Shown here: positions 12,506-12,968 of the stretch, piece after piece
Numbering within the stretch: the first letter of the stretch is position 1
Layout of the letters: every line of letters starts with the position of its first letter
Origin: an uncultured Lachnoclostridium sp.
GTDB lineage: Bacteria; Bacillota; Clostridia; Lachnospirales; Lachnospiraceae
Length of the DNA: 32,744 nucleotides
Reading direction: 5' to 3'
NCBI GenBank assembly: GCA_947369165.1
Contig: CANBKJ010000031.1
Location: forward strand, 1 to 32,744
The notes under the pieces: generated by a model
What the model was told of the DNA's origin: nothing
The model's database searches: none
Seen by the model: only the letters and a program-made list of their open reading frames with translations
Made by a program: the position numbers and the translations under genes

Positions 12506-12542
12506 AACGTCGATTCTGGATGCTGTCAGGATCGACGTTTTT
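12506..12542 (+). terminator. Terminator of hup
   Basis: AACGTCGAT (12506-12514) pairs with ATCGACGTT (12531-12539), and the stem continues through a T-G pair and CTG/CAG around an eight-base loop. A run of T residues ends at 12542. It is a strong intrinsic terminator. Confidence 0.88.
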
Positions 12543-12568
12543 GTATATGTGAAACAGAATGGAGATTA

Positions 12569-12717
12569 GTGTGAAAAATCACGCTGATGCCAAAGAACTA
12601 AAGTTCTTGGATTTTTCACACGGCTATTTGCTTCTGAGCGAAAGCAAATAGCTTTGTTCCGACACGAGAAACTCTTCGAGCTTTCTCGTGCGGTTCTTCG
12701 CGATAAATCGCTCAGAA
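12569..12717 (+). ncRNA. Structured multi-hairpin leader upstream of rqcP
   Basis: Four hairpins stand in series. I: GTGTGAAAAATC (12569-12580) with GATTTTTCACAC (12610-12621), holding an inner AAGAACT/AGTTCTT hairpin. II: GCTATTTGCTT (12623-12633) with AAGCAAATAGC (12642-12652). III: CACGAGAAA (12663-12671) with TTTCTCGTG (12682-12690). IV: GCGAT/ATCGC (12700-12711). The eight-base loop of hairpin II, CTGAGCGA (12634-12641), is exactly complementary to TCGCTCAG at 12708-12715, right before the ribosome site AATGAGG of rqcP. An RNA of this shape could form a pseudoknot or alternate folds that expose or hide the ribosome site. No coding potential is convincing here. A DNA-level palindromic repeat element is the main alternative. 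Confidence 0.6.
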
Positions 12718-12728
12718 ATGAGGATAAT

Positions 12729-12968
12729 ATGAGATTAGACAAATATTTAAAAGTATCCAGATTAATTAAGAGGAGACCGGTGGCCAATGAGGCGTGTGAT
12801 GCCGGGCGAATCCTGGTAAATGATAAGGTGGCAAAAGCCTCCCTTAATGTAAAACCGGGTGATGTTATTGAGATACAGTTTGGAAATAAGAATACGAAGG
12901 TGGAAGTGCTAAGTATTGAAGAAACCTACAAAAAAGACGAGGCAAAGGAACTGTACCGCTACCTGTAG
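12729..12968 (+). CDS. rqcP: S4-domain RNA-binding protein RqcP (YabO/HslR type)
   Basis: This 79-residue protein is a single S4 RNA-binding domain: MRLDKYLKVSRLIKRR, then a DAGRILVNDKVAKAS block and VKPGDVIEIQFGNK. It is the YabO/Hsp15 type; the B. subtilis protein, RqcP, works with RqcH on the 50S subunit in C-terminal alanine tailing of stalled nascent chains. The start is the ATG at 12729 behind AATGAGG (12717-12723); an in-frame upstream extension runs through the leader hairpins and is not credible. It sits between hup and yabP as in Bacillus. The 5' leader is unusually structured, so translation may be regulated. Confidence 0.92.
   Translation: MRLDKYLKVSRLIKRRPVANEACDAGRILVNDKVAKASLNVKPGDVIEIQFGNKNTKVEVLSIEETYKKDEAKELYRYL

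What the first reader, a model, noticed from the sequence alone, without database searches (positions are those of the whole stretch)
12569..12723. Four-hairpin leader whose loop matches the bases before the rqcP ribosome site
Between the hup terminator and rqcP lie four stable stems of 12, 11, 9 and 5 bp. The eight-base loop of the second is perfectly complementary to TCGCTCAG, which abuts AATGAGG. Such a loop-to-ribosome-site match is the mark of an RNA switch or a feedback site. RqcP is an RNA-binding ribosome quality-control factor, so autoregulation or sensing of translation state is an attractive idea.
Basis: partly seen in the sequence, partly recalled or inferred. Interest (0 to 1): 0.78.

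Follow-up and report, generated by a model that had tools for sequence, protein, structure and literature searches.

The report
Mobile structured leader rebuilding ribosome sites
A roughly 155-base stretch that folds into hairpins and a pseudoknot is one copy of a mobile element found in many bacteria of one family, where it usually sits between a gene's ribosome-binding site and its start codon and brings a replacement ribosome-binding site with it.

Summary
It is one copy of a large dispersed family of short mobile elements in Lachnospiraceae: P1, P2 (loop pairs with bases just before the SD), usually P3, the pseudoknot strand, an SD, then a start codon. Covariation is strong (23 of 35 pairs change on both sides, 0 of 500 shuffles). 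The loop/pre-SD helix is at least 8 bp in 91% of 131 parsed copies, 2% with shuffled loops. Of 105 copies chosen by P1-P2 sequence alone, 89 are followed by SD, ATG and an ORF, against 8.75% at random places. Of 30 rqcP loci examined in the genus only the window's has it; sister species show empty sites. It lands 3' of the gene's own SD, mostly after TA, and its new SD follows element subtype, not target. No match in Rfam, phages, plasmids or viral contigs. Y1 transposase, reverse transcriptase and IS110 transposase were not found in the genome with most matches, so the mobiliser is unknown. Any effect on translation is inferred.

The parts
   Evidence: ORF list
12506..12539 (+). intrinsic terminator after hup
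   Evidence: stem of 14 pairs then T-rich tail
12561..12564 (+). left Shine-Dalgarno (GGAG), inherited from the rqcP site before insertion
   Evidence: four close sisters have agaATGGAGGATNANATG with no element; left SD-like word in 127 of 139 copies against 20.7% control
12569..12723 (+). the mobile element; right edge uncertain within about 12723-12726 because the spacer is shared with the target
   Evidence: covariance model match 12555-12731, 155.1 bits; empty sites
12569..12621 (+). P1 hairpin, arms 12569-12580 and 12610-12621, with an inner hairpin 12593-12608 that other copies lack
   Evidence: two-sided changes at 7 of 12 P1 pairs
12571..12651 (+). possible leader ORF (GTG, 26 codons, stop TAG inside the P2 3' arm), 6 nt after the left SD
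   Evidence: translation; NTG at this place in 123 of 132 parsed copies
12622..12653 (+). P2 hairpin, arms 12622-12633 and 12642-12653, loop 12634-12641
12632..12641 (+). pseudoknot 5' strand (P2 loop plus top of stem), TTCTGAGCGA
   Evidence: I5; covariation
12659..12693 (+). P3 hairpin with one bulged A (12662)
   Evidence: two-sided changes at 8 of 8 counted P3 pairs
12700..12711 (+). P4 hairpin GCGA-TAAA-TCGC, shares 12708-12711 with the pseudoknot strand, so the two compete
   Evidence: at least 4 bp in 38% of 137 copies against 8% cross-pairing (at least 3 bp: 92% against 67%)
12708..12717 (+). pseudoknot 3' strand TCGCTCAGAA, 2 nt before the SD
12720..12723 (+). right Shine-Dalgarno (GAGG), supplied by the element
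   Evidence: right SD goes with element subtype: GAGG in 38 of 45 CTCA-type, GGAG in 59 of 80 CTCC-type copies, while left SD words do not split this way
12729..12968 (+). rqcP (S4-domain protein, 79 aa)

Best explanation
A short (about 130-180 nt), non-coding or nearly so, mobile element of Lachnospiraceae that inserts just 3' of an A, usually TA, most often between a gene's Shine-Dalgarno site and its start codon and pointing at that gene. Its 3' end carries a new SD, so the gene keeps a correctly spaced ribosome site after the insertion. As RNA it folds into P1, P2 and usually P3, and the P2 loop pairs with the bases immediately before the new SD. Shown by calls: dispersed copies linked to gene starts, empty sites in sister species, native left SD and element-borne right SD, covarying stems and pseudoknot. 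Inferred: the pseudoknot holds the pre-SD strand so that the SD and start stay open, making insertion tolerable; P4 offers an alternative state. Not known: the enzyme that moves it, and whether host genes gain any regulation from it.
For: Copies: 33 of 39 genomes of the genus match the model at E<=0.001, 61 of 397 sampled genomes of the family at E<=1e-5. In a class-wide sample 4 of 391 match: the window's own genome, two others of the family, and one outside it that is weak, 37.7 bits. Gene link: 120 of 139 copies are followed by a start codon and an ORF of 60 codons or more, or running off the locus, against 94 of 968 control sites. Copies chosen only by P1-P2 sequence: 89 of 105 against 105 of 1200 random places. 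In 1,025,214 bases of genome G024: 26 of 30 copies. Mobility: of 30 rqcP loci only the window's has a leader match. Empty sites in sister genomes for gatC, two further G036 genes and a carbohydrate kinase gene, and for a chorismate mutase gene whose first 240 nt are identical in empty G001 and filled G026. One gene (L189) holds the standard subtype in G036 and a compact subtype in G027, and neither in four others. Covariation. Strand: G-T 24 against A-C 8 among non-Watson-Crick cells. Architecture scan: 115 sites against 3 in block-shuffled sequence (most of those loci had been fetched because they hold an element). Edges: base before P1 is A in 133 of 139, preceded by T in 115 of 139.
Against: No mobilising enzyme or autonomous copy was found; in about half of G024 the model gave no split copy. 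Junctions are not uniform: some copies show a duplication of about 8-12 nt covering the SD (G026 chorismate mutase; G036 gatC), others little more than A or TA on each side (G036 L188), and in the window the left spacer (GGAGATTA) differs from the sister natives shown. 19 of 139 copies have no long ORF after them and only 8 of those 19 have a left SD word, so SD targeting is not absolute. The simple SD-hiding hairpin (CUC-/-GAG) is not supported by covariation. Predicted SD opening by the pseudoknot is modest over 139 copies (mean unpaired 0.25 to 0.35), and in the window the last two SD bases stay paired with coding sequence either way. For the pseudoknot helix alone, two of the five measures (pairs with a two-sided change; pair types) are not unusual against shuffles (68 and 126 of 500).
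Confidence: 0.8

Rival explanations
1. A cis-acting RNA switch or autoregulatory site for rqcP: RqcP or a signal binds the leader and toggles the pseudoknot and the SD.
For: Pseudoknot next to the SD with compensatory changes; a competing hairpin P4 that shares a strand.
Against: Only 1 of 30 rqcP loci examined in the genus has it; the same element precedes genes with no shared theme that I could see; empty sites at rqcP in close sisters.
Confidence: 0.04
2. A general RNA regulator that spread by copying: the element is mobile, and it also gives the genes it precedes a shared response (for example to ribosome supply, temperature or a metabolite).
For: Structure conserved over many genera, including the competing P4 and pseudoknot pairings; conserved place relative to the SD.
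Against: Structure could equally be kept for mobility or just for keeping the SD open; targets look unrelated; presence differs between sister species.
Confidence: 0.25
3. The fold matters at the single-stranded DNA level: hairpins and pseudoknot are recognised by the mobilising enzyme, as in HUH transposons or folded integron sites, with no role in the RNA.
For: Asymmetric ends without terminal inverted repeats; strand-specific wobble pairs fit single-stranded DNA as well as RNA.
Against: Y1 HUH transposase was not found in 7 of the 9 genomes with 20 or more model matches and is present in three genomes with none (G014, G018, G038); the pseudoknot strand abuts the SD, which a purely DNA role does not need.
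Confidence: 0.25
4. Leader-peptide device: the native SD now starts a short ORF at the element's NTG AAA AAT, whose translation opens P1/P2 or couples to the downstream gene.
For: NTG after the left SD in 123 of 132 parsed copies; frame 0 runs open to the gene start in 58 of 132 against 4 and 7 for the other frames.
Against: Copies are related, so the frame count is not independent; many copies, the window's included, stop well inside the element; compensatory changes in P1 remove the start codon in some copies, e.g. L132.
Confidence: 0.12
5. Intron-like or bypassed element: it is removed or skipped at the RNA level, restoring the native SD-to-ATG spacing.
For: Empty sites mean removal would restore the native leader; GUGUG at the 5' edge.
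Against: No Rfam intron or ribozyme match at gathering score in the window or in seven loci; the element brings its own SD, so removal is not needed; the 5' edge varies (CTGTG, GTATG, CCGCT).
Confidence: 0.03

Closest known systems
Small interspersed repeats and MITEs of bacteria (BOX, RUP, RU-1 to RU-3; ERIC recalled; PMC3049150 and PMC2759123 seen as search listing and start of abstract only)
   Same: Short, non-autonomous, many scattered copies, presence/absence between relatives.
   Different: Most copies point at a gene start and lie between SD and start codon, own SD at the 3' end, a covarying pseudoknot, no terminal inverted repeats, no partner transposase found.
Pseudoknot riboswitches acting at the SD (preQ1, SAM-V, SAM/SAH; PMC11625349, PMC6061858 and PMC7367207 seen as search listing and start of abstract)
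   Same: A pseudoknot close to the SD of the downstream gene (role at the SD partly recalled); compact.
   Different: Mobile, not tied to one pathway, no ligand suggested by the genes seen, the SD lies just outside the pseudoknot helix.
IStrons and mobile introns (PMC4227781 and PMC3073962, search listing and start of abstract)
   Same: Mobile element with an RNA part that softens the cost of insertion.
   Different: No ribozyme or transposase found here; cost is softened by carrying an SD rather than by splicing (inferred).
HEARO / IscB omega RNA (recalled; PMC9755519 seen only as search listing and start of abstract)
   Same: Structured RNA spread in many copies, reported beside start-codon-like sequence (recalled, not checked).
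   Different: No Rfam match; the copies are too short to hold a nuclease gene, and neighbours were not scanned for one.
REP/RAYT and IS200/IS605 elements (recalled)
   Same: Hairpins near the ends, short motif 5' of the insertion, orientation set by the motif.
   Different: Y1 transposase family PF01797 not found in 7 of the 9 genomes with 20 or more model matches.

Membership tests
rqcP-linked riboswitch or autoregulatory leader | Conserved upstream of orthologues of the regulated gene | tested here: not met
   1 of 30 rqcP loci examined in the genus has the leader; 6 further rqcP matches were not given as loci
rqcP-linked riboswitch or autoregulatory leader | Conserved secondary structure with compensatory changes, placed to affect the SD | tested here: met
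   (over copies at unrelated genes, not over rqcP orthologues)
rqcP-linked riboswitch or autoregulatory leader | Binds a ligand or the gene product | not testable with these tools
   needs a binding assay
MITE / non-autonomous DNA transposon | Multiple dispersed copies with empty orthologous sites | tested here: met
MITE / non-autonomous DNA transposon | Terminal inverted repeats | tested here: not met
   first 25 nt against reverse complement of last 25 nt in 139 copies: longest shared word 3.6 on average against 4.0 with shuffled ends; 3.6 of 15 in-register identities against 3.5
MITE / non-autonomous DNA transposon | Fixed-length target-site duplication | tested here: inconclusive
   A (usually TA) before P1 and mostly TA before the start; longer duplications in some copies only
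MITE / non-autonomous DNA transposon | Autonomous relative with a transposase sharing the ends | tested here: inconclusive
   no split copy in 1,025,214 bases of G024; no other genome was examined for this
REP/RAYT or IS200/IS605-derived element | Y1 (HUH) transposase in genomes where it multiplies | tested here: not met
   PF01797 in 10 of 39 genomes; not found in 7 of 9 genomes with 20 or more matches
Retroelement / group II intron derivative | Reverse transcriptase in genomes where it multiplies | tested here: not met
   PF00078 not found in G003, G024 and G033; the six other genomes with 20 or more matches do have one
Group I or II intron | Match to the catalytic core | tested here: not met
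   no Rfam family at gathering score in the window or in 7 loci
IS110 with bridge RNA | IS110-type transposase in genomes where it multiplies | tested here: not met
   PF02371 not found in G003, G016, G024, G028 and G032; found in the other four genomes with 20 or more matches
HEARO / omega RNA | Match to the Rfam model | tested here: not met
   no Rfam family at gathering score
HEARO / omega RNA | IscB-type nuclease gene nearby | not tested
   neighbouring genes were not scanned for it

The most novel reading that the evidence does not exclude
A new class of mobile element that hops from ribosome-binding site to ribosome-binding site: the target is the SD and its spacer, the element ends in a copy of that same motif, and the pseudoknotted fold is what the (still unknown, apparently non-Y1, non-RT, non-IS110) machinery and the ribosome both act on. 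Each insertion swaps a gene's native ribosome site for a folded, possibly bistable one, so the family rewires translation of up to tens of genes per genome in a lineage-specific way.
Probability: 0.3. Interest if true: 0.9.

Novelty: new variant of a known kind. Interest (0 to 1): 0.76.

Why it matters
Lachnospiraceae are among the main bacteria of the mammalian gut and rumen (recalled). If right, many of their genes start translation from a ribosome site donated by a mobile RNA-shaped element rather than by the gene itself, and which genes differ between sister species. That would be a new route by which translation rates evolve, a source of wrong leader and start annotations, and a natural set of replicate experiments: the same folded leader placed before unrelated genes, with the empty site kept in a sister species. 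It would also point to an unrecognised way of moving DNA that is aimed at, or tolerated best at, gene starts.

Tried and rejected
Rfam: no family at gathering score in the window or in seven loci with element copies; weak matches around the site (McaS, sR55, a viral 3' UTR) are below their gathering scores and were set aside as chance.

Mobiliser: Y1 transposase, reverse transcriptase and IS110 transposase families were counted across the 39 genomes; by eye none tracks the number of element matches, but no correlation was computed. No copy in viral contigs with two exact patterns, nor by blastn with the window's copy in phages or plasmids.

Target-site duplication: a first comparison of left and right flanks gave only a modest excess of identity (runs of 9 or more in 21% of 132 own pairs against 8.6% of cross pairs); the empty sites and the subtype-linked right SD explain this in part.

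SD-hiding hairpin: my idea that CUCC/CUCA pairs with the SD failed the covariation test as aligned; it is not claimed.

Leader peptide: looked attractive in the G024 type, where one frame runs to the gene, but many other copies stop early.

Counting cautions: the model also scores the P1 palindrome on the opposite strand. In one search, 20 of 50 matches were such echoes (18 of P1 only, 2 longer ones overlapping a copy), so per-genome match numbers (583 in all over 39 genomes, my sum) are too high as copy numbers. In some searches only 7 candidates per genome were scored, so those tallies are low. Rows dropped: 8 of 139 copies without a parsed P2; 7 of 139 without a parsed start; 2 of 139; 15 of 120 too near an end. 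The 139 copies are the strong matches among the 144 loci given, picked from the best-scoring listed places. R1 was trained with the ATG at its end, so leans towards starts; one search was run to avoid that. In one search one copy (L100) is counted twice. Six of the 36 rqcP matches were not returned as loci and were not looked at.

Literature: searches listed nothing that I recognised as describing this element; no paper was opened, only listings and starts of abstracts were seen, and most subscription journals are not in the library.

Full report
What was checked. The window's 12569-12723 holds the stems as described, with the loop match 10 bases long rather than 8 (TTCTGAGCGA 12632-12641 against TCGCTCAGAA 12708-12717). 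The fold is far below shuffled energy (z -5.6). P4 is 4 bp and shares its 3' strand with the pseudoknot.

It is repeated. A DNA search of the window's own genome gave five copies, the window's included. A covariance model R1 built from 13 copies gave 12 matches there at E<=0.01, one of them a reverse-strand echo of P1. The other four strong copies lie before a flavin reductase gene, a HAD phosphatase gene, argS and a gene for a 216-residue protein without a Pfam match. Of the six weak matches, L100, L101 and L103 are a compact subtype without P3, before a peptidase M50 gene, panD and ispD (from 100-residue pieces); their loops and pre-SD strands differ in sequence from the window's yet are complementary (read; L100 and L101 also found by the scan). 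L102 (mreC-like by recall; no Pfam match to the piece given) does not clearly keep the pairing, L098 is a truncated form with P3 and SD, and L099 is degenerate.

Spread. In the genus 27 of 39 genomes match by DNA and 33 of 39 by the model. In the family 61 of 397 sampled genomes match, from 56 of 334 genera. In a class sample 4 of 391 match: the window's own, two others of this family, and one outside it, weak at 37.7 bits. No match in viral contigs, phages or plasmids.

It is mobile. Of 30 rqcP loci examined in the genus only the window's has the leader; weak matches in three other loci lie elsewhere. Four sisters with 97-100% identical RqcP (G022, G023, G027, G036) keep the hup terminator followed by an empty leader ending AATGGAGGAT(A/C)A(T/G)ATG or nearly so. 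Further sites: gatC is filled in G036 and empty in the five others shown; the L188 gene likewise; a carbohydrate kinase gene is filled in G022 and G036 and empty in five others. The L189 gene is filled in G036, empty in G000, G015, G016 and G023, and in G027 holds a different, compact-type element after its own SD, that is, two subtypes at one gene in two species. A chorismate mutase gene is filled in G026 and empty in G001, with 240 of 240 identical bases downstream. Two genes (L137, L139) had no comparable locus to judge, and a HAD phosphatase gene was filled in all shown. In the second set most orthologues were too diverged in their leaders to read a junction. Tandem copies occur: in G024 (L154) the left flank of one copy is the right end of another subtype, and two matches in G031 C8 overlap by 19 nt at the shared SD.

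Where it lands. The base before P1 is A in 133 of 139 copies, preceded by T in 115. The left flank holds an SD-like word in 127 of 139 against 20.7% in control stretches. The right SD follows element subtype, not target: GAGG in 38 of 45 CTCA-type copies, GGAG in 59 of 80 CTCC-type copies. So the gene's own SD is left behind and the element supplies the new one. Junctions vary: some copies show a duplication of about 8-12 nt over the SD, others little more than A or TA on both sides, and the window's own left spacer differs from the sister natives shown. I read this as insertion within a short stretch that donor and target share; the exact chemistry is open. There are no terminal inverted repeats. 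19 of 139 copies do not open a long ORF, and these also tend to lack the left SD (8 of 19 have it against 114 of 120), so part of the SD link may be selection rather than aim.

Link to genes. 120 of 139 copies open an ORF against 9.7% of control sites (94 of 968). With copies chosen by P1-P2 sequence alone, 89 of 105 against 105 of 1200. In about half of genome G024, 26 of 30 (22 of 25 strong and 4 of 5 weak copies).

Structure. On 34 copies, 28 of them from other genera of the family and 6 from the window's genus, 96.4% of cells pair, 23 of 35 pairs change on both sides, and 113 cells change on both sides against 26 in shuffles; sliding the partner drops pairing to 30-49%. The pseudoknot alone pairs in 94% of cells, with 21 two-sided changes against 6.6 in shuffles, though two other measures, the number of pairs with such a change and the number of pair types, were reached by 68 and 126 of 500 shuffles. 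Copy by copy the helix is at least 8 bp in 91% of 131. An architecture scan of 284 held loci, most of them fetched because they carry an element, finds 115 sites against 3 in shuffled sequence, 6 of the 115 with a P2 of another sequence. Wobble pairs favour G-T over A-C, 24 to 8, so the sense strand is the one that folds, as RNA or single-stranded DNA. P4, which competes with the pseudoknot, has at least 4 bp in 38% of 137 copies against 8% cross-paired; the two can be read as alternative states.

How it most likely works. Shown: a dispersed structured element inserted after a native SD and carrying a new SD. Inferred: by pairing the bases before the SD with the P2 loop, the element keeps its SD from being buried, so that an insertion in a leader is tolerated. 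Folding calculations agree only weakly: in the window the first two SD bases go from 0.25-0.32 to 0.92-0.93 unpaired, but the last two stay paired with coding sequence either way; an empty leader gives 0.40-0.58; over 139 copies the mean goes from 0.25 to 0.35. A simple SD-hiding hairpin is not supported. Whether genes gain regulation is unknown; the unrelated gene set argues against one pathway.

What moves it. Y1 transposase, reverse transcriptase and IS110 transposase were each counted over the 39 genomes; G024, with the most matches and 98% complete, shows none of the three. No split or autonomous copy in the half of G024 examined. The mobiliser remains open.

Standing. No Rfam family and nothing recognised in eight literature searches of an open-licence library. 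I file it as a new variant of the small interspersed mobile repeats, because dispersed folded repeats are known; what is new is the place between SD and start codon, the replacement SD and the covarying pseudoknot. The stronger reading, a class of its own that hops between ribosome sites by an unknown mechanism, is not excluded.

Noticed in passing
L059, L061, L062, L063 upstream of rqcP: Other palindromic repeat families (for example GACGCGTCAGG-type and CCTAACGGACAGCGAGGACAC-type blocks, some in tandem) fill the hup-rqcP gap in other species of the genus, so this gap holds several kinds of repeats.
   Followed up: no
L048 upstream of rqcP: A short hairpin GTCTTACTCCCTTCGGTCGTAAGAC occurs twice in the leader, apparently another dispersed repeat.
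   Followed up: no
L027 near 1507; L310, L316, L322: Deletion forms: only the first bases of the element, or P1 plus a stub, remain before the start, with the right SD kept.
   Followed up: partly
L100, L101, L103, L305 and the G027 leader in L362: A compact subtype without P3 and with different P2 and pseudoknot sequences; in the own genome before peptidase M50, panD and ispD genes, in G027 at a gene that carries the standard subtype in G036.
   Followed up: partly
L002, L003, L007: Some copies carry an extra hairpin TAGCGAACATAGTTCGCTTTAGC between P1 and P2, and others (the window's too) an apical hairpin in P1; both look like secondary insertions into the element.
   Followed up: no
many copies in G024-type genomes; window 12654-12968: Frames run from inside the element into the gene (a 40-odd-codon frame MKNHTDMLIFHTAICAGASQIATDGRRELDVLVATPSLRSGMEV... 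in G024-type copies; a TTG at 12654 in frame with rqcP here), which could yield wrong N-terminal extensions in annotation.
   Followed up: partly
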